Below, piece by piece: positions 3,106 to 33,451 of a DNA stretch of 64,000 nt (the first letter of the stretch is position 1; each line of letters starts with the position of its first letter). The position numbers and the translations under genes are program-made. Source of the DNA: Acidisarcina polymorpha (GTDB lineage Bacteria > Acidobacteriota > Terriglobia > Terriglobales > Acidobacteriaceae). The stretch is from NCBI RefSeq assembly GCF_003330725.1, contig NZ_CP030840.1, positions 5,208,001 to 5,272,000 on the forward strand, in the 5' to 3' direction. The notes beneath the pieces were generated by a model. It worked only from the letters and a program-made list of their open reading frames with translations, was not told the origin of the DNA and made no database searches.

Positions 3106-3140
3106 AAGCGGCGAATAGAGCGTTCAGGCTTGAGCCGCTT
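3106..3140. terminator. Possible bidirectional terminator between rpiA and otsA
   Basis: AAGCGGC at 3106-3112 pairs perfectly with GCCGCTT at 3134-3140, followed on the + strand by TTCTTT. The loop is long (21 bases) and the right arm lies inside the end of otsA, so this is only a weak candidate. Its position, between two convergent genes 23 bases apart, is where a shared terminator would be expected. Confidence 0.3.
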
Positions 3141-5508: not shown

Positions 5509-5630
5509 CGTCCCATTAGGATGCCACGGAAGCGGATCAAGCTGCGTTTATTTCTGCAATTTGCACCGGCCCGACCCCTTGCATGGGGTCTCATGGATCA
5601 TTTACAACGTTTCGGAGGAGAGGTGTGCCG

Positions 5631-10579: not shown

Positions 10580-10751
10580 CGACACTCTCCGACCAGGGTT
10601 GGCCCTTCGCTCTTCCAGTTGATAAATTCAGCTAGAAGCGTTCTACACTGCATGTGCCGCAGTGTAGCACCGCAGGTCATCTGGAACGCCAAAACCAGGA
10701 GGGTGTCTGTCACAGGAGAGACAAGAGAAGTCAATTGACCGGGCGCTCGGT

Positions 10752-12563: not shown

Positions 12564-12628
12564 TCACAGCCCGCCCAAGGGCCCCGATGGTGTTGCGACC
12601 GCATCTGAGTAATTCAAACGAGGTGAAA

Positions 12629-13726
12629 ATGAAGGATGGTCCAGTTCGAGTCGGTATCATCGGCTCGCAATTTCAAGCGGAATGTCATGCCGCCGCAATC
12701 GATATGATTGAGGGTGAAATGACGGTGGTGGCAGTGGCATCCCCAACCCCCGGAAACGCTAAAGCGTTAGCAGATCGTCATAAAATCGCCCGGGTCTACA
12801 GCGACTATCGCGATTTGGCTGCCGACCCGGAAATCGAGGCAGTGACCATTACCTCGCCCAACGCTCTGCATTGCGAAATGGCCGTAACCCTGGCGCAGGC
12901 AGGCAAACATGTCATCTGCGAAAAGCCGCTCTGCGTCACCCTCGACGAAGCAGACAGGATGATCGAAGCGTGCCGTGCTAATAGCGTTCTGCTGCTTTAC
13001 GCGGAGGAGCTTTTCTTCACGCCGAAATACCTCAAGGCGAAAGAGATGGCCAACTCCGGCGCCTTTGGGAAGGTACACCTCATTAAGCAGAGCGAGAAGC
13101 ATTTTGGTCCGCACTCGGAATGGTTTTGGGATGTCAAGCGCTCAGGCGGCGGCGCGCTGCTCGATCTCGGCTGCCACGGAATTGCCTTTGCTTACTGGTT
13201 TCTCGGGCGTCCCAAGCTCTTGAGCGCCTACTCTCATCTGGGCACGTACGTCCACGGCGACAAGACCCAGGCCGATGATGAAGCAGTCACCATCATTGAG
13301 TTCGAAGGTCAGGCGTTCAGCGTTATCGAGAATAGTTGGGCGCGTCGCGGAGGCATGGACGACCGCATCGAAATTTACGGCGAAGGTGGCTTGACCATCG
13401 CCAATCTTCACATGGGAAACGCTCTGCCCACCTATAGCGAATATGGCTTTGGCTATGCGGTAGAAAAGGCCCCAACGACGACCGGCTGGACCTATCCTGT
13501 CTTCGAAGAGTTATGGAACTACGGCTTTCCTCAAGAGATGCGCCACTTCGCACGAGCCATCCGCGGACTGGAATCACCGCAGGCGACCGGCGAAGATGGA
13601 AAGGTAGTGCTCGAGGCGGTGTACGCCGCCTATGCCTCTGCGGGCCTTGGTTGTAAAGTATCGCTGCCTTACCAACCAACGACGGCACGGCCCATCGATG
13701 AATGGTTGAAGAGGAAGCAGGCATGA
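12629..13726 (+). CDS. Gfo/Idh/MocA-family NAD(P)-dependent oxidoreductase (cytoplasmic)
   Basis: Oxidises or reduces a sugar, inositol or keto-sugar using NAD(P). The N-terminal Rossmann motif is VGIIGSQFQAECHAAA. The family signature CEKPLCVTLDEADRM lies near residue 100, followed by the substrate-domain GGGALLDLGCHGIAF with the usual Asp and His. The start at 12629 is preferred over an in-frame ATG at 12587 because GAGGTG lies 4-5 bases before it and the Rossmann fold begins six residues later. Length is 365 residues, typical. No signal peptide. Its stop overlaps the start of the SIS-domain gene by four bases (ATGA at 13723), so the two proteins are translationally coupled and probably act in one pathway on an amino or keto sugar. 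Confidence 0.9.
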   Translation: MKDGPVRVGIIGSQFQAECHAAAIDMIEGEMTVVAVASPTPGNAKALADRHKIARVYSDYRDLAADPEIEAVTITSPNALHCEMAVTLAQAGKHVICEKPLCVTLDEADRMIEACRANSVLLLYAEELFFTPKYLKAKEMANSGAFGKVHLIKQSEKHFGPHSEWFWDVKRSGGGALLDLGCHGIAFAYWFLGRPKLLSAYSHLGTYVHGDKTQADDEAVTIIEFEGQAFSVIENSWARRGGMDDRIEIYGEGGLTIANLHMGNALPTYSEYGFGYAVEKAPTTTGWTYPVFEELWNYGFPQEMRHFARAIRGLESPQATGEDGKVVLEAVYAAYASAGLGCKVSLPYQPTTARPIDEWLKRKQA

Positions 13727-14826
13727 ACCGTCTTCCCATGCTCGAGAACATCTTTGCGCAACCAGCGTCGCATCGAACCCTGCTCGACTACCATGCCGGT
13801 CAAGGAAGCACATCGCTTCAAACATGTGGCGAGCGACTCCGCAACGCCTCGGGAAGATTGATTTACTCAGGGATGGGCGCTTCGATCTTTGCGGTTATCC
13901 CGGCCGTCAGCCGGTTGCTCGAGAACGGTTATCCGGCCCAGATCGCGGAGAGTTCCGAGCTGTTGCATTACGGTAGCGCCTCCTTGACAAAGGAGGATGT
14001 CGGTATTTTGATTTCGCGTTCCGGGGAATCGGTCGAGGTTGTGCGTCTTGCAGAGAAAATGCGAGAGGCCGGTATGACCGTGATCGGTGTCACCAATGTT
14101 CCTGGCTCGCCTCTCGAACAACTCGCCGACCATACCCTGACCATTGGGTCGCAAGCGGACCAGCTGATTGCCGTCCAAACTTATACGGGCACGGTTCTCA
14201 CCCTGCTTCTGCTTGCCGAAGAGGCTATCTCGGGCAGCAGTCTTGAGTTCAGCCAAGCTGCCTCGGCGATGCTGCCGCAGCTTTCGGCCCACATTGACGC
14301 GTGTTTCGAGGCAAGCGAAAGCTGGCGACACTGGTTGGAGCCAAGTGGAGTGCTCTACTTGCTTGGCCGTGGTCCGGCGCTTGCCTCCGTGCAGGAAGGC
14401 GCGCTGCTGATGCATGAGACTGCCAAAGCTTCAGCGGTCGGCATGTCCTCGGGGCAATTCCGCCACGGCCCAGTGGAGTGGGTCTCAGCGGAGTCCCGCG
14501 TGCTTGTGTTCGGCGCGCCTGAGGCAACCCAGGCCATCGACCGGTCACTGGCCAACGATCTCTACCGCATGGGAGCACAGGTCCGCTGGATCGGCCCGTC
14601 GCAAGGCGGCAGCGACAGCGGGGAGCACGCTCCAGCACTCATCCCTTGGCCCGACGTTGCGCCTGCGTTTGCGCCAGTCTTTGACGTTGTTCCCATGCAA
14701 GTTGCATCTTACCGGCTAGCGTTGTGGCGTGGCATTGTTCCCGGAGACTTTCGCTATGCCTCCGAGATCACGTCCGCAGAGTCCGGGTTCCCGCTCTTTC
14801 AATCACGGCATACTTCAAAGGAATGA
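13723..14826 (+). CDS. Double SIS-domain sugar isomerase/deaminase (GlmS isomerase-domain-like)
   Basis: Two tandem SIS domains, as in the isomerase half of glucosamine-6-phosphate synthase, but without the glutaminase domain. SIS 1 shows YSGMGASIFAV, ESSELLHYG and ISRSGESVEVV. SIS 2 shows LYLLGRGPALASVQEGALLMHETA and SSGQFRHGPVEW. Comparison with E. coli GlmS from memory suggests that its catalytic Glu488 (here HETA) and His504 (here FRHG) have counterparts. Lys485 and the C-terminal Lys603 appear replaced (ALLMHE; RYASEITSAE). That argues against a standard GlmS and for an AgaS/NagB-II-like isomerase or deaminase, or a deglycase. Start at 13723 overlaps the upstream stop (ATGA); an AGGAAG lies a few bases upstream. 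367 residues. Confidence 0.82.
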   Translation: MNRLPMLENIFAQPASHRTLLDYHAGQGSTSLQTCGERLRNASGRLIYSGMGASIFAVIPAVSRLLENGYPAQIAESSELLHYGSASLTKEDVGILISRSGESVEVVRLAEKMREAGMTVIGVTNVPGSPLEQLADHTLTIGSQADQLIAVQTYTGTVLTLLLLAEEAISGSSLEFSQAASAMLPQLSAHIDACFEASESWRHWLEPSGVLYLLGRGPALASVQEGALLMHETAKASAVGMSSGQFRHGPVEWVSAESRVLVFGAPEATQAIDRSLANDLYRMGAQVRWIGPSQGGSDSGEHAPALIPWPDVAPAFAPVFDVVPMQVASYRLALWRGIVPGDFRYASEITSAESGFPLFQSRHTSKE

Positions 14827-14867: not shown

Positions 14868-14896
14868 TTGACACCGCAAACGGCTGTAGATAGAGT
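14868..14896 (+). promoter_or_regulatory. Sigma-70-type promoter for the subunit 3 / GMC / TIM-barrel operon
   Basis: TTGACA at 14868-14873, a 17-base spacer, then TAGAGT at 14891-14896. The -35 is a perfect match and the -10 matches four of six. It sits 35 bases before the ATG at 14931 in a 104-base gap, suggesting that the three genes that follow are a transcription unit separate from the upstream dehydrogenase/SIS pair. Confidence 0.55.
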
Positions 14897-14930: not shown

Positions 14931-15554
14931 ATGGCAGGTCAGGCGCCTAGTCGACGCGAGCTTCTTCAAGCATTGACCCTGGCGGCCGCGGCAAGTGCCT
15001 GTCCCGGGTTCTGTCGCTGGAGTTACGGGCTCAGTGAAGCCGGCGCGCAACAAGCCAATGGTGCTTCCAGTGCGATCGTCAATCCCGTCTATCGTCCATT
15101 GTTTTTCACACCGAAACAATATCGAACGATCGAAGTACTGGCTGAACTCATTTTGCCTTCGATTCAGGATGGCGAAGGCAAGCAGCAACCGGGCGCCCGG
15201 GAGGCAGGCGTCGCCGAGTTCATCGACTTCATGGTGGCGAGCGATCCCTCTTTGCAGCCCCAATTTCGAGACGGGCTGACCTGGCTTGATCACGCCTCGA
15301 TGCCTGCAGGGACATTTGCCGGCTTAGAGCCGCAACAGCAGACCGCGCTTCTCGAGCGACTTGCTTACAAGGCCAGATATAAAGAAAGCGAACAGGCCGG
15401 GCAGCATTTCTTCAAGCTAGTACGCCGGTATACAGTGATGGGTTTCTACACCAGCAAGATCGGTCTCGAATCGCTGGACTATCCTGGGCTCACCTTTTAC
15501 GCAACCTCTCCCGGATGTACTCACGCCGGCAATCCTGAACATACCGGTCTTTGA
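14931..15554 (+). CDS. Tat-exported gluconate 2-dehydrogenase subunit 3-like protein (small subunit of GMC pair 2)
   Basis: Second copy of the Tat-carrier small subunit. The signal is SRRELLQALTLAAAA (residues 7-21), followed by the subunit 3 domain: YRTIEVLAELILPSI, REAGVAEFIDFMVA, a helical middle and a C-terminal RRYTVMGFYTSKIGLESLDYPG, the more conserved form of this family (the copy at 5631 diverges there). 207 residues. An AGAGGG box lies a few bases before the ATG. The flavoprotein gene starts 27 bases after its stop. In the well-studied FAD-dependent glucose dehydrogenase complexes the equivalent gamma subunit is needed for folding and export of the flavoprotein; I infer the same here. 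Confidence 0.9.
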   Translation: MAGQAPSRRELLQALTLAAAASACPGFCRWSYGLSEAGAQQANGASSAIVNPVYRPLFFTPKQYRTIEVLAELILPSIQDGEGKQQPGAREAGVAEFIDFMVASDPSLQPQFRDGLTWLDHASMPAGTFAGLEPQQQTALLERLAYKARYKESEQAGQHFFKLVRRYTVMGFYTSKIGLESLDYPGLTFYATSPGCTHAGNPEHTGL

Positions 15555-15581
15555 TCTTGACTCTAGGATGGGGCGCAATTC

Positions 15582-17267
15582 TTGGACACTTATGATGTCA
15601 TCGTAATCGGCACGGGGGCGGGCGGTGGCATGGCCATCAAGACCCTCTGTGAAGCGGGCCTCAAGGTCTGTGCGTTAAACGCCGGACGCCAGTTGGATCC
15701 CGCCAAGGATTTCCGTCACCATCGGCTGCCGTATGACATGAAATTCCGCGGCTTTGATTCTCCGGAACGCCGCGCCCAGAGCGTCGGCTACATGGATAGC
15801 GAGTATGTCGCTCCGGACGCATGGGAGCACGAGATCGCCTACGCGACCGCCGAAGGAACACGTTGGACGTGGCCTCGATCGAACGCCGTCGGCGGCAAGA
15901 CGAACTTCTGGGGCCGCTCTGCCGCGAGAATGGCTGAGATTGATTTCAAGGCTGCCTCGCGCGATGGATTCGATGTCGACTGGCCGATTTCTTATGACGA
16001 GATCGCCCCTTACTACACCCGCGTGGAAGAGATGATTGGCGTGGCCAGCACCATACAGAATCGGACTTCCAATCCCGATGGTAGATATCTGCCGCCTATC
16101 AGCTTTCGATGCCTGGATCACATCATCGAAGCCGGAGCGAAGAAATCGGGCATTCCTTATCTTCCCGACCGCATCGCGCAACTTACTAAGGAGCATCAAG
16201 GCCATCCGCCATGTCATTACTGCGGGAATTGTACGGAGGGGTGCGATGTGGGAGCTTTTTTTTCATCGCCGTACTTCCTTCTACCCACCGCCCATGCGAC
16301 CGGCAATCTCGAGCTGCGAACCAATGCGGTCGCTCGCGAAATCCTCGTTGATTCCGATGGCCGCGCCAAGGGCGTCGCTTACATCGATCGCACTAACCGC
16401 GCTGAGCGGGAAGTTTATGCCAAGGCCGTCGTGGTCGCTGCATCCTGCGCGACTACGGCGCAGATCATGTTGAATTCGAAATCAAGACACTGGCCTAGCG
16501 GCATAGCCAACTCCAGCGGGCAGCTAGGCAGAAATCTTTGCGATCACCTCTATGGCACTTCCGGATACGGATATCTTCCCCAGCTCCTTGGCCAGCCCAG
16601 CTTTCCTGACAATGTTTCCACAGCCACTGTGGCGTGGCTGCCGCGATGGCAGAACCTGGACAATCCCAAGCAGGAAAAATTCATACGCGGCTACTCTTTC
16701 TATCCCGGCGGTGGCTGCGATGTGTTTCCGAGCTACTACGACGATATTGAAGGCTTCGGTGCGTCCTATCGGGCTGAGATCAAGCGCCGCTACCCCACTC
16801 CGGTAAGCTTTACGGTGCAGGCACCATCACAGCGCTCCGATCAGAACTTCGTCGACATTGATCCAATCAAGAAGGATGTTTTCGGCAACCCCCAAGTACG
16901 CTTCCATTTTGCCTGGGATGAGAACACGATGAAAATGTGGGAGCACTCCGTGCAGGTATGCAAAGAGCTCTTCCATAACATGGGCGGCGTCTACCAAGGC
17001 CATGGCGAACCGGAGTCGCCCGGATGGAGTCTGCATGAGACAGGGACTTGCCGCATGGGCAACGATCCACAGCATTTTGTCACGAATCGCTTCGGCCAGA
17101 CTCACGATGTCCCCAATCTTTATGCCTGCGACGCCAGCGTGCTGCTCAACTGTACTGACAAGACCACTACACTTTCCGTTCTAGCGTTTTCTTTGCGTAC
17201 CTCCGAATACATTGTCAACCAGTTCAAGGCAGGTTCCCAAACGTCTACCGTTCCGAGCCGAGGATGA
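15582..17267 (+). CDS. GMC-family FAD oxidoreductase with a four-cysteine cluster (flavoprotein of pair 2)
   Basis: FAD-dependent sugar or glycoside dehydrogenase subunit. The start is a TTG at 15582-15584, fixed by AGGATGGGG 9 bases upstream and by the FAD-binding fold that follows at once (DVIVIGTGAGGGMAIKTL). Further landmarks are GGKTNFWGRSAARM, DWPISYDEIAPYYTRVEE, CHYCGNCTEGC with cysteines at 211, 214, 217 and 221, SLHETGTCRMGND and the C-terminal KTTTLSVLAFSLRTSEYI. The Cys spacing (C-x2-C-x2-C-x3-C) lies where FAD-dependent glucose dehydrogenases bind a 3Fe-4S cluster, so an Fe-S relay is likely. No signal peptide: it should travel with the Tat subunit upstream. Its stop overlaps the next gene's start by four bases. 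561 residues. Confidence 0.92.
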   Translation: MDTYDVIVIGTGAGGGMAIKTLCEAGLKVCALNAGRQLDPAKDFRHHRLPYDMKFRGFDSPERRAQSVGYMDSEYVAPDAWEHEIAYATAEGTRWTWPRSNAVGGKTNFWGRSAARMAEIDFKAASRDGFDVDWPISYDEIAPYYTRVEEMIGVASTIQNRTSNPDGRYLPPISFRCLDHIIEAGAKKSGIPYLPDRIAQLTKEHQGHPPCHYCGNCTEGCDVGAFFSSPYFLLPTAHATGNLELRTNAVAREILVDSDGRAKGVAYIDRTNRAEREVYAKAVVVAASCATTAQIMLNSKSRHWPSGIANSSGQLGRNLCDHLYGTSGYGYLPQLLGQPSFPDNVSTATVAWLPRWQNLDNPKQEKFIRGYSFYPGGGCDVFPSYYDDIEGFGASYRAEIKRRYPTPVSFTVQAPSQRSDQNFVDIDPIKKDVFGNPQVRFHFAWDENTMKMWEHSVQVCKELFHNMGGVYQGHGEPESPGWSLHETGTCRMGNDPQHFVTNRFGQTHDVPNLYACDASVLLNCTDKTTTLSVLAFSLRTSEYIVNQFKAGSQTSTVPSRG

Positions 17268-18187
17268 AGCTACTGACTCGAAGGACCTTTGTCGGCGCCG
17301 CATTGCTTTGCTCCGCAGATGCTGCGTTTGGAGTGACAGCGCGTTCGCCTCGGGCCAATTTTCCAATCGCTCCCCGTGCGCGGATCGCCGTTGCCACTTA
17401 TCCGTTCCGCGCCGTGATGGATGCGCCAGGTAATCCCGATCGCGATCCCGCGAAAGCTGGGATGGATCTAGCGGCCTTCGCTAAGTTGGTGAAAGATGAA
17501 TTCAAGGTCAGCGGCATCGAACCGCTCCACTCCCACTTCTCCTCGACAGAACCAGGTCAGATCGTCAAGCTGCGAGCGGCCTTTGACGCGGTCGGGGTAC
17601 ATACAGTCAATATTCCTGTCGACGAACCCGTAGAACTCTGTAGTCAGGTTGAAGAAAAACGAAATGCCGGGAATGCGAGTTACCGCCGATGGATCGATAT
17701 CGCGGTTATTCTCGGTTCGCCAAGCATTCGGGTTTCAATTCCCACCTGCTCCGATACTTCAGATATTCCCAAGGCTATACAAGCTTTGCAGCCCACTCTT
17801 GACTACGCGCGTGAAAAAGGAATCGTCGTTAACCTGGAAAATGATGATCCTGTCTTGTCCTCAGCGACCCGTATCCTGGCAGCTATCCAGCAAGCGAATA
17901 CGCCGTGGCTGAGAGCGCTCCCCGACTTCGCAAATTCGCTCATGGGTGGCGATGAGCGATTCAACACGACAGCCGTCAAGCAGATGTTTGCCCACGCCTG
18001 GAACATCACGCATGTCAAAGATGCGGAAGTTATCAAAGGGAAACGCGAGACTGTCTCGCTTGGCGAGCTCTTTACTATCGCTAAAGCCTCGGGCTATCGC
18101 GGCTACTACTCGATGGAATCGGATTCGGAAGTAGACCCATTCGCTGACACCAGGCACCTGATCGAACAGACCTTGTTGCTGATGTAA
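17264..18187 (+). CDS. Tat-exported TIM-barrel enzyme, sugar phosphate isomerase/epimerase family (AP endonuclease 2-like)
   Basis: Xylose-isomerase-like TIM barrel, a family of divalent-metal sugar isomerases, epimerases and lyases. A twin-arginine signal opens the protein (TRRTFVGAALL, residues 5-15), then the mature domain: VATYPFRAVMD, LHSHF, the metal-type segment VVNLENDDP near residue 188, WLRALPDF, HVKDAEV and a C-terminal YYSMESDSEVDPF carrying a likely metal-ligand Glu. 307 residues. Its ATG overlaps the stop of the GMC gene by four bases, so it is coupled to the dehydrogenase and is probably periplasmic. Given this pairing I infer that it acts on the oxidised product (for example a 3-keto-glycoside), but plain isomerase or epimerase activity cannot be excluded. 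Confidence 0.82.
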   Translation: MKLLTRRTFVGAALLCSADAAFGVTARSPRANFPIAPRARIAVATYPFRAVMDAPGNPDRDPAKAGMDLAAFAKLVKDEFKVSGIEPLHSHFSSTEPGQIVKLRAAFDAVGVHTVNIPVDEPVELCSQVEEKRNAGNASYRRWIDIAVILGSPSIRVSIPTCSDTSDIPKAIQALQPTLDYAREKGIVVNLENDDPVLSSATRILAAIQQANTPWLRALPDFANSLMGGDERFNTTAVKQMFAHAWNITHVKDAEVIKGKRETVSLGELFTIAKASGYRGYYSMESDSEVDPFADTRHLIEQTLLLM

Positions 18188-18340: not shown

Positions 18341-20527
18341 ATGCTGCTCTCCGCCACTCATCGGGTGCTCCGCCCCTTCAGTGTTCTAGTCGCTCTTCTT
18401 GGCTTTGTCTCGTTAGCTGCACAAGCCGAGTCCGCCTATGTCCGGGTAAGTCAAGTGGGCTATGAAGTTGGATCGTTGCCCGCGCGCGCCTATCTTATGT
18501 CGACTGCATCCGAGACAAATGCCACCTTCAAGGTTGTATGTCCCGATGGCCACAGTGCCTTTACGGGGAAGGTTGGCTCGCTTTTGGGAACGTGGGCGAA
18601 TAGCAAGCAGCTCACCTACAAGGTCTATGCTCTTGATTTTGTCGTGCCGCGCGGCCGCAGTTATACCATCTCCGTTGCTGGACCCGTAGCAGCGCTCTCG
18701 CCCAAATTCGCCGTTGATGTTCCCGACGCTTTATATCCAGGATTACTGGTCAATTCGCTGTTCTTCTATGAAACCCAGCGAGACGGAGCCGACTTCATCC
18801 AAAATGCATTGAGAGATGCTCCTGGGCACCTGAAGGACAAGAACGCTAAACTCTACGAAACTCCCCCTCTCGATGACAACGACCTTATCAACAACGTGCC
18901 GCCGGCAAAGCCGCTAACCCCAGCGAAGCTCCCCAACATCGATGCAGATGGTGGATGGTGGGACGCCGGCGATTATGAGAAGTATGTTGAAACGATAAGT
19001 TATACAACCGCATTGATGGAGATTGGGGTTCGCGACTTTCCTGCTCAAATGGGGCCCGACGCGCCACTCGATCCACCTGCGCCTCCAAATGCAGTCTCTT
19101 ACGCGGGCGACAGCGGCGCCGGATCACCCCGGTCAGCGGATTTCAGCGCGGAGGCGAAGTTCGGTATCCATTGGTTATTGAAGATGTGGGATAACTCTGC
19201 CCATGGACTCCCATATCAGGTTGATAACACCCAGGATTGGAACTATTACGGCGAAGGCGACCCAGCCTCGGCAGAGGGCGGCTGTGGCGGCACCTACAAT
19301 ACCCCTTACTGCCTCCTTACCGAGTACGACATCTGGACGCTTCCCCAGGCTGCGGACAACTACAAGCAAGATGGCGATCCAGGGGCTTGCGATCCATTCA
19401 CCACTTTCTTCATCTGCAATCGTCCCGTCTACGTAGCCCCGCGACTCTCATTAAGTCCCAACCTGGCCGGCCGTCTAGCCGCAGATTTTGCTCTGTGTTA
19501 CCAACTTAATCGCGAACAGGATCCAACCTTGGCGAAAGCATGCCTGAAGGACGCTGAAGAGGCTTTCGCGCTTGCTGACACACGTTATCCCGATCCAGCG
19601 CCCTCGGTAGGTTCCGGGTCCTGTCCAAACTGCTTGCTGACCATTGCTCCTTTCGACGGGTACCCCGAGACCGTCTGGGGCGATGATATGGAGTTAGGTG
19701 CAACCGAGCTATCCGTGGCGCTGCGCTTTGCTCATGGCGAATCGGACTTGCCTGCCGGATTGCCGCATACGGATCCTAACTTCTATTTGCGGCAGGCTGC
19801 CAGCTTTGCTAAGTATTACATCGCCAAGATTTACAAACCGGGCTTCAGCGACACTCTCAATCTCTATGATGTCAGCGGACTCGCCCACTTCGAGTTATAC
19901 CGGGCGCTTAAAGATGCAGGCGACCCACAGGATTTGGATGTTTCCCAGCAGACGATAGGCAATCAGCTTCTCTACCAGGTGAATGCGGCAGTGGCCCAAT
20001 CAAGTTCGGACCCGTGGGGGTTCGGAGTGCCTTGGAGCGCGGGCGACACCACCTCTCATGGAGCAGGTTTGTCGGTGATGGCGAGCGAGGCCTACTCGAT
20101 GACTCATGATCCGCGCTATAACACTTACTCGCAGCGATGGCTGGCTAATATCCTGGGGGCGAACTCGTGGGGATCGTCCTTCATCGTTGGCGATGGAAGC
20201 ACCTTCCCGAATTGCATTCAGCATCAGGTCGCTAACCTGGCCGGGGCGCTTGATGGCACCGCCGGCGGCACGCCCATTCTTTGGGGAGCCGCCACCGAGG
20301 GTCCCGACAGTTACACGAGTTCGGGCGTGGTAGGTGGAATGAAGCTTTGCCCCGCGAACGGGGTTGACACCTTCGCGAAGTTCAATGGGAATCCGGGCGC
20401 CTACAATCCATCCGAGACCGCGTTGTTCCAGGACAATGTGCAGTCGTACAGCACAACCGAACCGGGCATCGATCTGACCGCGACCTCCTTCCTGATGTGG
20501 TCGTGGAGGATGGCCGAGGGCAAATAG
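18341..20527 (+). CDS. Glycoside hydrolase family 9 enzyme, secreted
   Basis: Inverting glycosidase of family GH9, which contains endoglucanases, cellobiosidases and also exo-beta-glucosaminidases. A signal peptide covers about the first 29 residues (hydrophobic FSVLVALLGFVSLAAQA). An Ig-like N-terminal domain follows (VRVSQVGYEVGSLPARAYL), then the (alpha/alpha)6 catalytic domain. Catalytic features: DAGDYEKY with Asp208 and Asp211 as the base pair, GAGLSVMASEAYS, and the C-terminal TEPGID with Glu707 as the likely acid. GGAAGTGAGG lies 5 bases before the ATG. 728 residues. The gene stands alone behind its own promoter and operator-like site. Because it shares that site with a GH2 glucosaminidase-like gene, an amino-sugar substrate is as likely as cellulose. 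Confidence 0.92.
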   Translation: MLLSATHRVLRPFSVLVALLGFVSLAAQAESAYVRVSQVGYEVGSLPARAYLMSTASETNATFKVVCPDGHSAFTGKVGSLLGTWANSKQLTYKVYALDFVVPRGRSYTISVAGPVAALSPKFAVDVPDALYPGLLVNSLFFYETQRDGADFIQNALRDAPGHLKDKNAKLYETPPLDDNDLINNVPPAKPLTPAKLPNIDADGGWWDAGDYEKYVETISYTTALMEIGVRDFPAQMGPDAPLDPPAPPNAVSYAGDSGAGSPRSADFSAEAKFGIHWLLKMWDNSAHGLPYQVDNTQDWNYYGEGDPASAEGGCGGTYNTPYCLLTEYDIWTLPQAADNYKQDGDPGACDPFTTFFICNRPVYVAPRLSLSPNLAGRLAADFALCYQLNREQDPTLAKACLKDAEEAFALADTRYPDPAPSVGSGSCPNCLLTIAPFDGYPETVWGDDMELGATELSVALRFAHGESDLPAGLPHTDPNFYLRQAASFAKYYIAKIYKPGFSDTLNLYDVSGLAHFELYRALKDAGDPQDLDVSQQTIGNQLLYQVNAAVAQSSSDPWGFGVPWSAGDTTSHGAGLSVMASEAYSMTHDPRYNTYSQRWLANILGANSWGSSFIVGDGSTFPNCIQHQVANLAGALDGTAGGTPILWGAATEGPDSYTSSGVVGGMKLCPANGVDTFAKFNGNPGAYNPSETALFQDNVQSYSTTEPGIDLTATSFLMWSWRMAEGK

Positions 20528-20561: not shown

Positions 20562-22613
20562 TCAGCGCTTTGTCGCTCGGACGAGTGTCTCCACTCCGGG
20601 AACGATGCCATCGATCAGCGTCGCCTGTGGCGCACCTAACTTTTTGAGCGATGCAAGTTGATCTCCCCTGGTGGCTGCACTCACGGATTCACGCTTCTCC
20701 AGCGAATCGAGCGCCGACAATCCGATCGCCGCTGCTTGGCTGAGGTTTCGCGAGAGGGGCGCGAGTTCCGCGGTCAATGCAGAATGCGGAAGCAGCGGCT
20801 GCAGTAGCGCGTCGTTGTCCCGCCATAATGTGAGCCATTGCCGCGCTTGCCGACGATCGTTCTCAGTGGCAGTGCCACCAGCGATGCGATCTGCAATGCC
20901 GCGGAACTGCCGGGCTTGGTCGCTCTCCGATGGCACCGCATCTACCAGATGATTGAGCGGAGTGTAGCTGTAATATTTGGTCAGCTCTTCACGCGAATAC
21001 CCCTTCGGGGGTTCAACCACGCTGGCCAGCACCTTCAATGAGGATGGATCTTCATCGCCAACCATCCGCTCTATCATCAGCTCGCTGGTTGTGCGATACA
21101 ACATTCCACGCTGGGCCAGATCCTCAGAGACGACTCCAAGCCGCCGGTACATCGAATCAACGTCTTTCGTTTCCTGAGGCGACCACAGCCGCTCAGCGAT
21201 TGCCGCCGTTCGAGGCCAGATGCGACCGCCAACGTTCTCCGGGGTCGTATATTCCGACCACATGGTCGCTTCGCCGCCAAGAATATTCTTCTGTTGATCG
21301 GCGGTGAGCTTCGCAGTGGCGCCTTCAAGAGGATCAACCGCATAGTGCTGCGACGCTGGCTGGTTTAAGTCGATGTAATATCCGGTGGAAAGAATGCCGC
21401 GGTTGCCGCGCTCCGCCGCCTGCGCCAGAGACTTCTGACCGCGCCACGACTGAATGACTACGTCCTTGGGCGTATCCGGCTGCAGCACTTCGTCCCAGCC
21501 GACAGTAATCTTTCCGCGCTTCGCCACCAGCTTCTGCACCCGGCCGGTGAAGTAGGCCTGAAGCGCTGCATCGTCTTTGAGGCCGTGTTCGCGCATGAAT
21601 TGCTGGATGCGAGGATTGCGGTCCCACTCCTTGCCGTTGCACTCGTCACCGCCGATGTGAAAGTATGCGTCGGGAAACAGCGCCGTCATCTCTTCGATAA
21701 ATCGATCGAGAAATTCATAGGTGCTCTCCCGGGTAGGATCCATTGCCGGATCGAAGATGCCAAATTCCCGCTCAATTTGGTAAGGCCCGTTGCCGCTTGC
21801 GATGTTAGGGTACCCGACGAACCAGGCTGTTGCATGGCCCGGCATGTCGAACTCAGGAATGACGCGGATGCCGCGATCGCGAGCATAGTCGATGATCTCG
21901 CGGACCTGTTCCTGAGTGTAAAAGAGGCCGTCGGAGCCCTTTTCCTGAAGCAGAGGGAAAGTCTTGCTTTCGATGCGAAAACCCTGGTCTTCGGATAGAT
22001 GCCAGTGAAAGACATTCATCTTGACCGCTTCCATTCCATCGAGAGTCTGACGGACGACATCCACCGGCATGAAGTGGCGCCCCGAGTCGAGCATCAACCC
22101 CCGCCAGGGAAAGCGAGGCTGGTCATCGATGGTGATTGCAGGCACAACGAAACCATTAGGCGAGATCTTCGCCAGTTGGAGAAAGGTCTGCAGCCCGCGC
22201 AAGATGCCGAGCGGATTGGCTGCATTGAGAACTGCCTGTGTCGGGGTAATCTCCAGCCGGTAAGATTCGTCTTCACCGAGCTGCTGGACCGGTGCACTCG
22301 GGCCTGCCGTTTTGATGATGAGCTTCGATTGATTCACCGGCTGCGGCGGAACCGGAAGGATTCCGGTTTCGCGCGACAGGGTGGCGACGAAGCGGTCGCG
22401 CGCCCGTTCCAGCCGGGGTTCGGTATAACCCTCGAAGACGACCTGCAGTCCTCCGTGAAGAGAAAGGCTACCAGCGCCTTGAACCACATGGGCGGGTAGC
22501 GGCATTACCGGCAGCGTCGCCTGCGCATACATCGGGCTGCCATGAAGGACAAAGAAAACGCAGGTCACAACAAGAGCGGTCGCAAACCGCCGGAGCTTAC
22601 TCAACGAAAACAT
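20562..22613 (-). CDS. Beta-N-acetylhexosaminidase (GH20), secreted
   Basis: Releases terminal GlcNAc or GalNAc by substrate-assisted catalysis. From the ATG at 22611-22613 the protein has a signal peptide (FATALVVTCVFFVLHG), the small GH20b N-terminal domain (VMPLPAHVVQGAG to about residue 135) and the barrel: PRFPWRGLMLDSGRHFMP, HWHLSEDQGFRIES, VIPEFDMPGHATAW, and YFHIGGDECNGKEW with catalytic Asp323-Glu324. VGWDEVL and WRGQKSL follow. A longer C-terminal tail (last roughly 150 residues) has no motif I recognise. An in-frame ATG at 22664 would start inside the terminator-like hairpin, so the later start (GGAAGG 11 bases upstream) is preferred. It lies 98 bases downstream of the TonB receptor gene. 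Confidence 0.93.
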   Translation of the reverse strand: MFSLSKLRRFATALVVTCVFFVLHGSPMYAQATLPVMPLPAHVVQGAGSLSLHGGLQVVFEGYTEPRLERARDRFVATLSRETGILPVPPQPVNQSKLIIKTAGPSAPVQQLGEDESYRLEITPTQAVLNAANPLGILRGLQTFLQLAKISPNGFVVPAITIDDQPRFPWRGLMLDSGRHFMPVDVVRQTLDGMEAVKMNVFHWHLSEDQGFRIESKTFPLLQEKGSDGLFYTQEQVREIIDYARDRGIRVIPEFDMPGHATAWFVGYPNIASGNGPYQIEREFGIFDPAMDPTRESTYEFLDRFIEEMTALFPDAYFHIGGDECNGKEWDRNPRIQQFMREHGLKDDAALQAYFTGRVQKLVAKRGKITVGWDEVLQPDTPKDVVIQSWRGQKSLAQAAERGNRGILSTGYYIDLNQPASQHYAVDPLEGATAKLTADQQKNILGGEATMWSEYTTPENVGGRIWPRTAAIAERLWSPQETKDVDSMYRRLGVVSEDLAQRGMLYRTTSELMIERMVGDEDPSSLKVLASVVEPPKGYSREELTKYYSYTPLNHLVDAVPSESDQARQFRGIADRIAGGTATENDRRQARQWLTLWRDNDALLQPLLPHSALTAELAPLSRNLSQAAAIGLSALDSLEKRESVSAATRGDQLASLKKLGAPQATLIDGIVPGVETLVRATKR

Positions 22614-22643
22614 TTTCTGACTGACCTTCCCGATAGTTTGAGA

Positions 22644-22681
22644 CAAAGAAAAGCAGTACGGCACGTCGTGGCGTACTGCTT
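22644..22681 (-). terminator. Rho-independent terminator after the TonB receptor gene
   Basis: On the reverse strand, AAGCAGTACG (22681-22672) pairs perfectly with CGTACTGCTT (22660-22651) across an 11-base loop that can fold further (CACG/CGTG). A T-rich run (TTCTTTG) follows. It lies between the receptor stop (22712) and the GH20 start (22613), so GH20 expression would depend on read-through or a separate promoter. Confidence 0.65.
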
Positions 22682-29405: not shown

Positions 29406-29652
29406 GTGTGCCTCATCTTAAACACGGCCGATTCATTTGGGAAACTGCAATCGAACGCTGGATGGACGCGCGTCCCACTTATGTATTGAATGCGGGGCGT
29501 AGTTCTATTCCTCGTATCTAGGCTTAGCAGGCCGCATTTGTCCAGGTACCGTTGCCGTTAGGCCGAAGCTTTGGAGCGCCATGCTACGATGCACGAGATC
29601 AATTGCACCCGGCATGACTCCAGTCTCGCCGGACAAGGAGAGCACATCGCAG

Positions 29653-30585
29653 ATGAACCCGGGCCCCATGAGCGAGGCCGCAGCTGTCATTGCTATCGAC
29701 ATCGGCGGCGGCTCCACCAAACTCGCACTCGTGAATAGAAAAGGCGCAATCTCCGGCTGGCACTCTTTCAAAACAGTTGCGTCGAGCGGGGCTGCACTTC
29801 TCGAAAGAGTCGTGGCCGCCAGTCGCCGCCTCCAGACGCAGGCGGAACAGCCCATCGCCGGGATCAGCGCTGCGGTCGCCGGCTTTGTGACACCCCAGGG
29901 CGAACTGGAATATAACCCCAATCTGCCCTGGCTGGAGCGCATTCCGATCGCTGCTATCCTCGCCGGGGAGTTAGGTTTGGACGTCCTTGTCGATGCCGAC
30001 TCAAATGCCGCCTGCGTTGCTGAGTACATCTATGGCCGTGGTCGTGGTTCCGAGCGATTTCTTTGCCTGACCGGAGGAACTGGCCTCGGCGTCGGCATGA
30101 TGGTCGAAGGCAAATTGTTGCGGATCGCCCACGGCTGCATGGGCGATGCCGGGCACGTCATCGTTTCGCCGGAGGGGCCTGCTTGTAGTTGTGGCGGCCA
30201 TGGTTGTGCTGAGGCCATGCTCTCAACCGCTGTCTTGGCCAAGCGCTACGCAGAGATCATCGGATGCAAAGATGCGGGCTTCCGTGCGATCGTTGAAGAC
30301 GCACAATCGAACAAGCCGGCGGCCCTCGAGTTGCTGAAAGAAGCAGGCTACTGGCTCGGTATCGCTTCCGCTTCGCTGGCGAACATCTTCTTTCCCGATC
30401 GCATCGCCGTTGCTGGGGGACTTTCTCAAGCCGGGGATGCACTTATGATTTCTGCGCAAGCTTCTTTTCGCTCGCATGGTGGCCAGCTTCCTCTAACCAA
30501 AGCCTCCCTGGTGCGCTCAACCACTGGCGAACACGCGACCCTTCTAGGCGCTGCAGCATCCTTCTTCCACCCCGAGCTTTTATGA
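29653..30585 (+). CDS. ROK-family sugar kinase
   Basis: Phosphorylates a hexose or amino sugar (glucose, N-acetylglucosamine and N-acetylmannosamine are typical ROK substrates). Start at ATG 29653 with AAGGAG 12 bases upstream. A farther in-frame ATG at 29581 has no ribosome site, and the conserved part begins after 29668. Motifs: AIDIGGGSTKLALV (phosphate-1 loop), DADSNAACVAEY, LTGGTGLGVGMMV (with catalytic Asp in the preceding loop), HGCMGDAGHVIV and the zinc motif CSCGGHGCAE. No N-terminal helix-turn-helix, so it is a kinase and not a ROK repressor. About 310 residues. It sits just upstream of the GH2 glucosaminidase-like gene, so a GlcN or GlcNAc kinase role is plausible. Confidence 0.88.
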   Translation: MNPGPMSEAAAVIAIDIGGGSTKLALVNRKGAISGWHSFKTVASSGAALLERVVAASRRLQTQAEQPIAGISAAVAGFVTPQGELEYNPNLPWLERIPIAAILAGELGLDVLVDADSNAACVAEYIYGRGRGSERFLCLTGGTGLGVGMMVEGKLLRIAHGCMGDAGHVIVSPEGPACSCGGHGCAEAMLSTAVLAKRYAEIIGCKDAGFRAIVEDAQSNKPAALELLKEAGYWLGIASASLANIFFPDRIAVAGGLSQAGDALMISAQASFRSHGGQLPLTKASLVRSTTGEHATLLGAAASFFHPELL

Positions 30586-30793: not shown

Positions 30794-33451
30794 ATGTGGT
30801 CTAGATTTGTCGCCCTGCCTGTGTTATTCGCCATCGGCTCCAGCTGCCTCGCTTTGTCTGCGACCCTTCCGTTACGGGAAGGCTGGGAACTCCAATCTGG
30901 CTGCAAGACTCCATCGCAAGGGGATGCTATCTCCACTGCCGGCTTCGACGCCAAGGGCTGGTCCACGGTCAATGTGCCGTCGACCGTCCTGGCTGCTCAG
31001 GTCGCCTCGGGAGAGTTCAAAGACCCTTACTACAGTGACAACCTCCGCAAGATTCCGGGAACGACTTACCCGGTCGGCGACAATTTTTCCAATCTGCCCA
31101 TGGCCGCCGATAGCCCTTACCGCTGCAGCTGGTGGTACCGGAAGCAATTTAACGTGCCCGCCGCCGAGAAGGGAAGCAGACTCTGGCTGCGATTTGGCGG
31201 CATTAACTACCGGGCCAATCTGTGGGTCAACGGCAAGCGCATCGCCGAGGCGACCCAGGTGGCGGGTGCCTATCGCACGTATGAATTCGATGTTACCGAG
31301 AGCGCGCTTCCGGGGAAGACGAATGTCGTCGCGGTCGAGACTTTCGCTCCCACCGAAACCGATCTCGGCATCAACTGGGTCGACTGGAATCCCTGTCCGC
31401 CTGACAAAGACATGGGTCTCACTGGAGCCGTAGACTTGGTGAGCAGCGGTCCCGTAACCGTGCGCTCTCCGCTGGTAGTTACCCACATAACCGGCAGTGA
31501 CGGAGCTGCCGCGGACCTTACCGCCTATGTGCAGCTGCACAACGCTTCTACCGAAGCGGTCAAAGGGAACGTTCTTGCAACCATCGCCGGCGTGTCATTG
31601 AAACAGGCGGTCGAGTTACAACCCGGCGAAGACAAGGAAATCCTCTTCGATCCGCAGACTTACCCAGAGCTACACCTCAAGCACCCAGCACTCTGGTGGC
31701 CGTATCAGATGGGCTCGCCTCACCTTGAGACAGCGTCGGTCTCCTTTGTAACCGCTGGAAAAGTCTCCGACGAGCAGTCAGTGCGGTTCGGTATTCGGGA
31801 AGTTACTTCAGAATTGACGGACAAAGGCTTTCGCCTATTCAAAGTCAACGGCAAGCCGATTCTGATTCGCGGTGCGGGGTGGTCCCAGGACATGCTCCTA
31901 CGCGAGAATCCGCAGCACCTGGAACAGCAGTTTCGACTCGTCGAAGATATGCACCTGAACACTATCCGTCTCGAAGGGAAGTTAGAGACCGAACATTTTT
32001 TCCAGTTGGCAGATGAACAGGGGATTCTCGTGATGCTCGGCTGGTGCTGTTGCGATCAGTGGGAGCACTGGGACAAGTGGACCGCGGAAAATCACGCCGT
32101 CTCGACAGCCTCGCTGCGCTCCCAAATGTTGCGACTGCGCCATCACGCCAGCCTGCTCGTATGGCTCAACGGCAGCGATAACCCTCCTCCGGCAGATGTG
32201 GAGAAAACCTATCTTGATGTCGAATCTCAAACCCGTTGGCCAAATCCCATCCTGTCTTCCGCCACGCAAGCTCCTACAACGGTGACCGGGAAGAGCGGTG
32301 TCAAGATGACGGGTCCTTACGACTACGTCGCGCCGTCCTATTGGCTCACAGATGCGAACCGCTACGGCGGAGCCTACGGCTTCAATACCGAAACCAGTCC
32401 CGGCCCGGCGATCCCGACCTTAAGCAGCTTGAAGAAGTTCATTCCTGCAAGCAATATCTGGCCTCCAGACGATATCTGGTCTTTGCACTACGGAGGCGAG
32501 GGATTCAAGAAGCTTACCGTTTACAACGAAGCACTCGAGGCGAGCTATGGCCCGGCGAAAGACCTCGACGACTATCTTCGCGTCTCGCAAACCATGGCTT
32601 ACACCGGCGAACGGGCCATGTTCGAAGCCTATGGCAGGAATAAGTACACTTCGACCGGAGTTATCCAATGGATGCTCAACAACGCTTGGCCATCGATGAT
32701 CTGGCACTTGTATGACTACTATCTCGATGCCGGCGGCGGATACTACGGCGCCAAGAAAGCCTGCGAGCCCCTCCATGTGCAATATTCGTATGACGATCAC
32801 AGCGTCTTCGTTGTGAACAGCGACTATCATTCGGCCGGCAAGCTGAATGTCAGCGTGGAACTCTACGATTTGCATATGCAAAAGCTGTATTCTCAGCAGG
32901 CGACGGTTGTTCCTGAATCCGACTCGTCTGTGAAAGCTTTGACAATTCCGCAAGAGCAATTCTCCGACAAGTCTCCGATCTATTTTGTCGAGCTGCTGCT
33001 CAAAGATGCGCAAGGAGCTACCGTCTCCCGGAACTTCTACTGGGTACCGTCGAAACTCACCGAGTTCGCATGGGAGAAAACCGACTACACTCATACGCCT
33101 GCCGTGAGTCATGAGGACCTTACTGCGTTGAGGCAATTGCCGAAGACCAAAATCGAATCTTCCCTGCAGGTTGAGAAGGATGGTACCTGGCGGGTCAACC
33201 TGCATAACCCTTCGACGGCGTTGGCCTTCCAGGTGAGCGTGGATGCAGTGGATGCAACCGGGCAGGATATGAGCCCCATGCCTTGGTCGGATAACTATGT
33301 CGAGCTGATGCCCGGAGAAACACGCACCCTTAGCGCCAAGCCGCCAGCTGCGAACGCCGGCGCTTCCATTGTGGTCTCCGGATGGAACATCCCTTCGGAA
33401 ACCTTGAAGGCGGCCCCTCAAAAAAGCGTGCCTCAAAACAGCGCTATGTAG
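30794..33451 (+). CDS. Glycoside hydrolase family 2 enzyme, exo-beta-D-glucosaminidase-like, secreted
   Basis: Signal peptide (VALPVLFAIGSSCLALSA), then a GH2 sugar-binding domain (WWYRKQFNVP, NYRANLWVNGKRIAE), two Ig-like domains, the TIM barrel from about residue 330 (GFRLFKVNGKPILIRGAGWS, HLNTIRLEGKLE), and C-terminal beta domains. The active site reads LVWLNGSDNPPP, with Asp462 where most GH2 enzymes have Asn-Glu, and FNTETSPG with Glu533. The Asp acid/base, the Glu nucleophile and the roughly 71-residue spacing match the exo-beta-D-glucosaminidase (CsxA-type) subgroup, as does INWVDWNPCPPDKDMGL. This suggests removal of GlcN from chitosan oligomers. 885 residues. AGAGAGG lies 11 bases before the ATG. 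The APC permease gene follows 49 bases later. Confidence 0.9.
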   Translation: MWSRFVALPVLFAIGSSCLALSATLPLREGWELQSGCKTPSQGDAISTAGFDAKGWSTVNVPSTVLAAQVASGEFKDPYYSDNLRKIPGTTYPVGDNFSNLPMAADSPYRCSWWYRKQFNVPAAEKGSRLWLRFGGINYRANLWVNGKRIAEATQVAGAYRTYEFDVTESALPGKTNVVAVETFAPTETDLGINWVDWNPCPPDKDMGLTGAVDLVSSGPVTVRSPLVVTHITGSDGAAADLTAYVQLHNASTEAVKGNVLATIAGVSLKQAVELQPGEDKEILFDPQTYPELHLKHPALWWPYQMGSPHLETASVSFVTAGKVSDEQSVRFGIREVTSELTDKGFRLFKVNGKPILIRGAGWSQDMLLRENPQHLEQQFRLVEDMHLNTIRLEGKLETEHFFQLADEQGILVMLGWCCCDQWEHWDKWTAENHAVSTASLRSQMLRLRHHASLLVWLNGSDNPPPADVEKTYLDVESQTRWPNPILSSATQAPTTVTGKSGVKMTGPYDYVAPSYWLTDANRYGGAYGFNTETSPGPAIPTLSSLKKFIPASNIWPPDDIWSLHYGGEGFKKLTVYNEALEASYGPAKDLDDYLRVSQTMAYTGERAMFEAYGRNKYTSTGVIQWMLNNAWPSMIWHLYDYYLDAGGGYYGAKKACEPLHVQYSYDDHSVFVVNSDYHSAGKLNVSVELYDLHMQKLYSQQATVVPESDSSVKALTIPQEQFSDKSPIYFVELLLKDAQGATVSRNFYWVPSKLTEFAWEKTDYTHTPAVSHEDLTALRQLPKTKIESSLQVEKDGTWRVNLHNPSTALAFQVSVDAVDATGQDMSPMPWSDNYVELMPGETRTLSAKPPAANAGASIVVSGWNIPSETLKAAPQKSVPQNSAM

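What the first reader, a model, noticed from the sequence alone, without database searches (positions are those of the whole stretch)
14931..18187. Tat subunit + Fe-S-type GMC flavoprotein + Tat-exported TIM-barrel enzyme in one coupled operon: likely periplasmic glycoside oxidation and cleavage unit
Seen: three genes behind one promoter, with 27-base spacing and then a 4-base ATGA overlap. The small subunit and the TIM-barrel enzyme each carry twin-arginine signals, and the flavoprotein has none. Known: in FAD-dependent glucose dehydrogenase and glucoside 3-dehydrogenase complexes, a Tat-signalled small subunit exports the GMC subunit, and TIM-barrel and Gfo/Idh/MocA enzymes occur in 3-keto-glycoside pathways. 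Inference: the TIM-barrel partner acts on the oxidised sugar, perhaps by beta-elimination of a 3-keto-glycoside. The coupled Gfo/Idh/MocA-SIS pair just upstream (12629-14826) could handle the products in the cytoplasm. No cytochrome c subunit is nearby, so the electron acceptor is unknown.
Basis: partly seen in the sequence, partly recalled or inferred. Interest (0 to 1): 0.75.

Follow-up and report, generated by a model that had tools for sequence, protein, structure and literature searches.

The report
Periplasmic oxidise-then-cleave sugar operon
A bacterium, probably one of the Acidobacteriota, carries a conserved operon that probably oxidises a sugar linkage outside the inner membrane and then breaks it: a known strategy in an unusual version with altered active-site residues, in a locus that may be geared to amino sugars such as those of chitin and chitosan.

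Summary
In detail: sub3 (PF13618, twin-arginine signal), a GMC flavoprotein (Fe-S-type cysteines, no signal) and a Tat-signalled TIM barrel form a tight unit, with a coupled Gfo-SIS pair 104 bases upstream. The order Gfo-SIS-(ROK)-sub3-GMC-TIM recurs in two Acidobacteriota MAGs, and Gfo-SIS-(ROK)-sub3-GMC in three more genomes. Of 31 GMC-ortholog loci, 17 have Gfo, SIS, ROK, TIM or PF06439 (3-keto-disaccharide hydrolase) within 6 kb, against 12 of 40 paralog loci and 1 of 40 arbitrary windows. Closest known: the Agrobacterium GlycDH-TAT-OGE-HYD-Gfo operon and Caulobacter LacABC with DUF1080. New here: the GMC clade has Thr where homologs mostly have Asn or His (base His kept); the TIM clade keeps a putative E/D/H/E metal site but has Asp at the place of the eliminases' catalytic His; SIS and ROK genes belong to the cassette. 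A CsxA-like exo-glucosaminidase and a GH20 enzyme nearby make an amino-sugar substrate plausible, not proven. Verdict: new variant of a known kind.

The parts
12587..13726 (+). Gfo/Idh/MocA oxidoreductase, no signal seen (likely start 12629): proposed cytoplasmic reductase of the 3-keto sugar
   Evidence: PF01408 2e-27 and PF22725 3.5e-26; nearest solved chains 6jw6 and 6nor; orthologs precede SIS in L061, L065, L136, L137, L139
13723..14826 (+). SIS-domain phosphosugar isomerase/deaminase-like protein, overlapping Gfo by ATGA
   Evidence: PF01380 2.6e-21; aligned to the GlmS isomerase domain; Glu and FRHGP kept in seven members looked at
14868..14896 (+). promoter-like site TTGACA-N17-TAGAGT in the SIS-sub3 gap (weak)
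   Evidence: number of sites found is not above shuffles
14931..15554 (+). small subunit (gluconate 2-dehydrogenase subunit 3 family) with twin-arginine signal
   Evidence: PF13618 1.7e-28; RR motif found by pattern in 13 of 15 other sub3 proteins looked at, not in L111 and L149
15582..17267 (+). GMC flavoprotein, catalytic subunit; FAD motif GTGAGGG, Fe-S-type CxxCxxCxxxC, active-site His485 and Thr528
   Evidence: PF00732/PF05199; FAD-GDH 6a2u 9.7e-38
17264..18187 (+). Tat-signalled TIM-barrel enzyme (AP_endonuc_2) with putative metal ligands E192, D221, H250, E285 and Asp194 in place of the usual His
   Evidence: PF01261 2e-16; alignment A1
29581..30585 (+). ROK-family sugar kinase, homolog of the ROK gene inside the cassette in L061, L065 and L139 (here 11 kb downstream)
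   Evidence: PF00480 9.8e-49
18341..20527 (+). GH9 enzyme with CelD_N domain, 153 bases downstream (context, not shown to be part)
   Evidence: PF00759 2.1e-47
20562..22664 (-). GH20 beta-hexosaminidase (context)
   Evidence: PF00728 2.6e-98
30794..33451 (+). GH2 exo-beta-D-glucosaminidase (CsxA-like; context)
   Evidence: 2vzs 4.4e-163 over residues 26-874; PF18368 6.3e-27

Best explanation
The unit is a periplasmic oxidise-then-cleave module. The small subunit carries the folded FAD/Fe-S GMC subunit through the Tat pore (inferred from family knowledge and the signals). The complex oxidises C3 of a glycosyl unit with His485 as base and passes electrons through its Fe-S cluster to an unknown acceptor (inferred). 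The separately Tat-exported, probably metal-dependent TIM barrel then cleaves the 3-keto-glycoside by elimination and/or hydration (inferred from its place beside the flavoprotein and from PF06439 hydrolases lying near the flavoprotein in other genomes). The released 3-keto sugar is imported, reduced by the Gfo/Idh/MocA enzyme, phosphorylated by the ROK kinase and fed to glycolysis through the SIS enzyme (inferred from cassette content). Shown: gene order, signals, motifs, conservation of the cassette. Not shown: any activity, the regiochemistry, the substrate.
For: Same order in L061 and L065 and partly in L136, L137, L139. 17 of 31 ortholog loci have Gfo, SIS, ROK, TIM or PF06439 within 6 kb, against 12 of 40 paralog loci and 1 of 40 arbitrary windows; PF06439 6/31 vs 0/40 vs 1/40; TIM 7/31 vs 3/40 vs 0/40. 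The seven neighbouring TIM barrels carry an RR signal. A TIM homolog (G027, L117) sits in a row with a BT_2158-like Gfo and PF06439. A Pseudoalteromonas megaplasmid has isomerase/epimerase-MFS-DUF1080-GMC-sub3-isomerase/epimerase. Known parallels: PMC10628242 and PMC9007349 (passages).
Against: 14 of 31 ortholog loci show none of the five families within 6 kb (13 of the 31 have a flank cut by a contig end). Against the paralog loci the single-family differences are weak: uncorrected one-sided p 0.042 Gfo, 0.032 SIS, 0.22 ROK, 0.071 TIM, 0.0051 PF06439, and related genomes are not independent. The reference sequences came partly from the ortholog loci; among the 22 loci that gave none, 9 have one of the five. 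TIM homologs in relatives mostly do not sit beside a GMC (1 of 29 other loci within 1.5 kb). The Asn/His partner of the catalytic His is Thr. The TIM lacks the His that is essential in AtOGE. No cytochrome c partner is seen. Regiochemistry cannot be read from sequence.
Confidence: 0.55

Rival explanations
1. The GMC complex is an ordinary periplasmic sugar dehydrogenase (C1 of a free hexose or hexosamine, or a polyol), and the TIM barrel is an isomerase or 3-epimerase acting on the oxidised free sugar; no glycosidic bond is cleaved.
For: Nearest solved GMC relatives are glucose dehydrogenase and fructose dehydrogenase; the TIM profile hits L-ribulose-5-phosphate 3-epimerase UlaE at 5.7e-8 and D-tagatose 3-epimerase at 5e-4; the eliminase His is absent.
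Against: PF06439 3-keto-disaccharide hydrolases within 6 kb in 6 of 31 ortholog loci; the TIM is exported, whereas sugar-phosphate epimerases work in the cytoplasm (recalled); Gfo, ROK and SIS make sense as later steps for a released 3-keto sugar.
Confidence: 0.25
2. [quoted passage not shown]
For: AtHYD is also a 'sugar phosphate isomerase' family protein, with preliminary evidence for hydration (PMC10628242); G027 carries TIM, Gfo and PF06439 together, and the Pseudoalteromonas plasmid has isomerase/epimerase genes with DUF1080; the own genome has 6 PF06439 matches outside the window; Asp194 instead of His may suit hydration.
Against: In the window and in L061, L065, L133, L134 the TIM is the only lyase candidate found in the operon, and TIM and PF06439 do not occur together in the 31 loci (7 and 6 loci, 0 shared; not significant alone).
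Confidence: 0.15
3. The three genes are neighbours without a shared pathway.
For: 14 of 31 ortholog loci show sub3-GMC (or GMC alone, L150) without any of the five other families.
Against: GMC and TIM overlap in the same order in three genomes (window, L061, L065), and TIM lies directly upstream of sub3 in two more.
Confidence: 0.05

Closest known systems
Agrobacterium tumefaciens GlycDH-TAT-OGE-HYD-Gfo operon (PMC10628242)
   Same: Flavoprotein that oxidises C3 of glycosides, expressed together with a TAT-pathway signal protein; TIM-barrel 'sugar phosphate isomerase' enzymes for elimination and (preliminary evidence there) hydration; Gfo reductase (passages and Discussion seen).
   Different: No SIS enzyme or ROK kinase is named in the four-enzyme pathway in the parts I saw; two TIM proteins there, one here; OGE has a catalytic His134 and a His metal ligand on strand 5, here Asp and Glu. 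The OGE entry 8BVK is not among the codes printed for the profile search of our TIM. The GlycDH sequence was not at hand for a direct comparison.
Caulobacter LacABC lactose 3-dehydrogenase with DUF1080 3'-ketolactose hydrolase (PMC9007349)
   Same: Periplasmic dehydrogenase complex with a proposed PF06439 cleavage enzyme encoded near it; PF06439 lies within 6 kb of 6 of 31 of our GMC orthologs.
   Different: LacABC has three known components, all required; no cytochrome c gene was seen in the window; the window cassette has a TIM barrel and no PF06439.
C-glycoside eliminases (PuCGE 7EXZ, AgCGD2 7DNN)
   Same: TIM-barrel metal enzymes acting on 3-keto-glycosides; detectable by profile (row of 7bvr/7exz 5.9e-7, row of 7dnm/7dnn 1.9e-3).
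   Different: PuCGE has two subunits and a catalytic His143 (PMC10628242); ours is a single Tat-exported gene with Asp at that place.
FAD-dependent glucose and fructose dehydrogenase complexes (6a2u, 7w2j)
   Same: GMC subunit with Fe-S-type cysteines; glucose dehydrogenase 9.7e-38, fructose dehydrogenase 5.4e-34.
   Different: C1 or C5 oxidation and a cytochrome c subunit (both recalled); Asn in 6a2u at the place of our Thr528 (alignment).
Pseudoalteromonas shioyasakiensis megaplasmid locus CP076682.1 (L220)
   Same: isomerase/epimerase-MFS-DUF1080-GMC-sub3-isomerase/epimerase, with an annotated N-acetylglucosamine kinase nearby.
   Different: GMC about 35% identical, with HKNCT instead of DKTTT; a quick script search of its two isomerase/epimerase proteins against our TIM set printed no match (not checked further).

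Membership tests
GMC/sub3 Tat-exported FAD sugar dehydrogenase complexes | GMC N- and C-domains | tested here: met
   PF00732 1.8e-18, PF05199 4.7e-18
GMC/sub3 Tat-exported FAD sugar dehydrogenase complexes | adjacent PF13618 small subunit with Tat signal, GMC subunit without signal | tested here: met
   signals judged by the RR motif, no signal predictor available
GMC/sub3 Tat-exported FAD sugar dehydrogenase complexes | Fe-S cysteine motif | tested here: met
   CHYCGNCTEGC 211-221; the four cysteines are kept in the 11 orthologs printed
GMC/sub3 Tat-exported FAD sugar dehydrogenase complexes | active-site His with second residue His or Asn | tested here: not met
   His485 kept in 29 of 29 other orthologs and 28 of 28 controls; second residue Thr in the window and 29 of 29 orthologs; N 17, H 7, E 3, G 1 in the 28 controls
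GMC/sub3 Tat-exported FAD sugar dehydrogenase complexes | cytochrome c subunit (FAD-GDH, FDH; recalled) | tested here: not met
   no CxxCH motif in called window ORFs of 80 aa or more
Glycoside 3-dehydrogenase | C3-specific oxidation of glycosides | not testable with these tools
   only neighbourhood evidence
OGE/CGE 3-keto-glycoside beta-eliminases | TIM barrel of the AP_endonuc_2 type | tested here: met
   PF01261 2e-16
OGE/CGE 3-keto-glycoside beta-eliminases | metal ligands on strands 5, 6, 7, 8 | tested here: met
   E192 (His in 5 of 20), D221, H250, E285 aligned and conserved; by alignment only, no structure
OGE/CGE 3-keto-glycoside beta-eliminases | catalytic His two residues after the strand-5 ligand (His134 in AtOGE) | tested here: not met
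   Asp194 here (END); Asp in 19 of 20 aligned members, His only in L024; 4ovx has ENH at this place
OGE/CGE 3-keto-glycoside beta-eliminases | closer to eliminases than to epimerases | tested here: inconclusive
   UlaE 5.7e-8, CGE 5.9e-7, D-tagatose 3-epimerase 5e-4; best hit 4ovx has no named function
PF06439 3-keto-disaccharide hydrolase | PF06439 domain | tested here: not met
   TIM protein hits only PF01261
SIS phosphosugar deaminases/isomerases (NagB-II, GlmS isomerase domain) | SIS domains with catalytic Glu and His (E488, H504 of GlmS; numbers recalled) | tested here: met
   Glu and His at the aligned places in window, L061, L065, L136, L137, L139 and L111; equivalence counted by hand from the alignment
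SIS phosphosugar deaminases/isomerases (NagB-II, GlmS isomerase domain) | C-terminal Schiff-base Lys of GlmS (K603, recalled) | not tested
   the alignment ends before that place
SIS phosphosugar deaminases/isomerases (NagB-II, GlmS isomerase domain) | curated family cut-off | tested here: not met
   glmS 103.5 bits of 418, NagB-II 64.6 of 430

The most novel reading that the evidence does not exclude
An oxidative, 3-keto route for amino-sugar glycosides (chitosan or chitin oligosaccharides): a GMC dehydrogenase with a His-Thr active site oxidises C3 of a GlcN/GlcNAc unit in the periplasm, an Asp-based metal TIM lyase cleaves it, Gfo restores the hydroxyl, a ROK kinase phosphorylates and the SIS enzyme deaminates to fructose 6-phosphate, side by side with hydrolytic GH2/GH20 enzymes.
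Probability: 0.2. Interest if true: 0.75.

Novelty: new variant of a known kind. Interest (0 to 1): 0.5.

Why it matters
Cleavage of glycosides by C3 oxidation is emerging as a second way, beside hydrolysis, to break sugar polymers and plant glycosides. If right, this unit gives an Acidobacterial version whose oxidation and cleavage both lie outside the cytoplasm, with a defined enzyme set of six genes and two altered active sites that allow direct mutational tests (Thr528 to Asn or His; Asp194 to His). It would also open the question whether amino-sugar glycosides are broken this way in soils, where Acidobacteria are common (recalled).

Tried and rejected
A link through a PIG-L deacetylase (L137) was looked for in all 31 ortholog and 40 control loci and found in L137 only, so it was dropped as support for an amino-sugar substrate. 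TIM/PF06439 mutual exclusion (7 and 6 of 31, 0 shared) was considered as proof of gene replacement and rejected: the numbers do not reach significance (about 0.18 by a hand hypergeometric estimate), the tree needs two changes for each label, two of the seven TIM genes (L062, L066) are of other TIM subfamilies, and the G027 and Pseudoalteromonas loci have both kinds. Agrobacterium GlycDH itself was sought among plasmids to compare its active site; the two Agrobacterium loci and one Sinorhizobium locus opened are not that operon. The FAD protein at 10752-12563 was considered as a further member and rejected: among the loci searched with it, a homolog showed only in L105, about 9 kb from its GMC, and as a short match in L003; none in L133-L152. 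GH2, GH20 and GH3 relatives are not enriched near the orthologs (1, 1 and 1 of 31, against 3, 0 and 0 of 40 arbitrary windows), so the amino-sugar context is particular to this window. Paper searches listed almost only unrelated papers.
Full report
Observation. Pfam assigns PF13618, GMC_oxred_N/C and AP_endonuc_2. Twin-arginine motifs are present in sub3 and TIM and not seen in GMC. Upstream lies Gfo-SIS, itself coupled by ATGA, 104 bases away. A promoter-like site lies in that gap, but such sites are no commoner than in shuffles.

Conservation. In the class-level search 190 of 399 genomes have a GMC match at E up to 1e-100; only three candidates a genome were scored and the list was cut. In the listed rows, 31 places in 28 other genomes have 60-73% identity, and the remaining ones 44% or less. 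A scan of named genomes gave 49 loci, 8 of them at 65-84%. The order Gfo-SIS-(ROK)-sub3-GMC-TIM is in the window (ROK not at that place), L061 (uncultured Acidipila, 84% GMC identity, LacI first, ROK present) and L065 (Bryobacteraceae, ROK present). L133 and L134 have TIM directly before sub3-GMC. L111, L112, L113, L149, L151 and L152 have PF06439 within 6 kb; in L111 and L149 a Gfo gene lies between (for L112 and L151 the assignment rests on similarity to the PF06439 references only).

Controls. The 40 paralog loci are the 20 regions and 20 of the other 41 loci, picked mainly for long flanks; the 40 arbitrary windows are 14-kb stretches of nine genomes at round positions chosen by me. Within 6 kb, orthologs / paralog loci / arbitrary windows: Gfo 11/31, 6/40, 0/40; SIS 7/31, 2/40, 0/40; ROK 6/31, 4/40, 0/40; TIM 7/31, 3/40, 0/40; PF06439 6/31, 0/40, 1/40; any of the five 17/31, 12/40, 1/40. 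One-sided uncorrected p against arbitrary windows: 3.3e-5, 0.002, 0.0051, 0.002, 0.024; against paralog loci: 0.042, 0.032, 0.22, 0.071, 0.0051. Against this: the reference proteins came partly from ortholog loci, and of the 22 ortholog loci that gave none, 9 have one of the five; 13 of the 31 have a flank cut by a contig end, which lowers their counts; related genomes are not independent; LacI, GH2, GH20 and GH3 are not enriched. Paralog loci also show some of these genes, so the association is with this kind of GMC complex in general and somewhat stronger in the ortholog clade.

GMC active site. The ortholog clade is one branch (30 rows with the window, 100/100, stem 1.05, which warns of long branches; L068, cut short, was left out). 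The window and all 29 other aligned orthologs keep the base His485 and have Thr at position 528 (DKTTT, DKTST in L152). The 28 controls keep the His and have N 17, H 7, E 3, G 1 at the second place (the E and G rows were not checked for alignment shifts). In the earlier alignment, 61 rows other than copies of the window reach these places: H in 61; then T 11, N 26, H 22, Q 2; the 11 with T are the orthologs. Five GMC proteins from plasmid records have Asn there by eye. In the FAD-GDH alignment the Thr stands where Asn is. Work on pyranose dehydrogenase shows that the first His is the base and the second residue mainly binds substrate: H556A and H556N still turn over, and H556A oxidises glucose predominantly at C2 and only very slowly at C3 (PMC4950071, passages). 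A change of the equivalent Asn to Ser in a cellobiose dehydrogenase raised peroxide production (PMC3948749, passages). So Thr is likely a change of specificity or acceptor use rather than loss of function, but C3 oxidation cannot be taken for granted.

TIM barrel. The alignment of 20 members keeps E192 (His in five), D221, H250 and E285 at the places of metal ligands; Asp194 replaces the His of ENH in 19 of 20. In AtOGE the corresponding His134 is the base, and H134A is devoid of activity (PMC10628242, passages). The equivalence rests on the motif position and on alignment with 4ovx (ENH), not on a structure. A profile search finds 4ovx (no named function) 1.1e-47, Art22 2.4e-13, UlaE 5.7e-8, C-glycoside eliminases 5.9e-7 and weaker. 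The subfamily (window, L061, L065, L133, L134, L002-L010) is supported 99/98 and has END in all 14. For its other nine members no GMC was called in the 16-20 kb around them (L114-L122, with a simple gene caller that missed some genes); one of them (G027, L117) sits with a BT_2158-like Gfo and PF06439, next to a homolog of the window's GH20. All seven TIM genes near GMC orthologs carry an RR signal.

SIS, ROK, Gfo. The SIS protein aligns with the GlmS isomerase domain; the residues at the places that I recall as E488 and H504 are kept in seven members looked at; the Schiff-base lysine of GlmS lies beyond the alignment and was not tested. It falls far below the curated cut-offs of GlmS and NagB-II. 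ROK lies between SIS and sub3 in L061, L065 and L139; here a homolog is at 29581. The Gfo protein is nearest to solved dehydrogenases 6jw6 and 6nor, which I recall as aminoglycoside-pathway sugar dehydrogenases KanD2 and GenD2.

Substrate. The window also holds GH9 (153 bases downstream), GH20, a CsxA-like exo-beta-D-glucosaminidase (2vzs 4.4e-163), a BT_2158-like Gfo (349 bits of a cut-off of 750) with a Pfam Tat match just under its cut-off, and ROK. With a deaminase-like SIS this suggests glucosamine or N-acetylglucosamine glycosides. These glycosidases are not conserved beside the orthologs, so I give this reading about 0.2. Six spellings of 3-keto-glucosamine and 3-keto-chitobiose occur in no paper of the library; the listings showed nothing on this subject either. 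The library lacks most subscription papers.

Novelty. The strategy is known: A. tumefaciens GlycDH-TAT-OGE-HYD-Gfo and Caulobacter LacABC-DUF1080. Membership in OGE/CGE is not claimed because the catalytic His is absent; it may still work like them. The combination with SIS and ROK, the His-Thr clade and the Asp TIM clade make it a new variant.

Noticed in passing
window 5583-6356 and 6443-8014 (+): A second sub3 (PF13618 6.5e-16, not used) and GMC pair (35% identical; ends WQNPT), the only other PF13618 match found in the genome, beside divergent otsA/otsB-like trehalose genes 3127-5508. Both complexes of this genome lie within 12 kb.
   Followed up: partly
window 27882-29405 (-): Gfo/Idh/MocA protein with a probable Tat signal related to BT_2158 glycoside 3-dehydrogenase (349 bits, cut-off 750), a second possible periplasmic 3-keto-glycoside enzyme in the same locus.
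   Followed up: partly
window 10752-12563 (+): FAD-dependent amine-oxidase-like protein 65 bases before Gfo (start 12629) on the same strand; not found beside the GMC orthologs.
   Followed up: partly
window 9167-10585 (-): Multicopper oxidase with an RR motif near its start; role unknown here.
   Followed up: no
L143, L146, L147: GMC orthologs with SLHDTG instead of SLHETG around the catalytic His.
   Followed up: no
L137 5124-6172: A PIG-L deacetylase gene followed by a second partial match just before Gfo-SIS-sub3-GMC; among the 71 loci searched, in this one only.
   Followed up: partly
L220 (CP076682.1): Pseudoalteromonas megaplasmid with two isomerase/epimerase genes, MFS, DUF1080, GMC and sub3 in one stretch and an annotated N-acetylglucosamine kinase nearby.
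   Followed up: partly
L024/L124 (G004): One locus with two sub3-GMC pairs around a TIM gene; its TIM has ENH where the window's subfamily has END.
   Followed up: no
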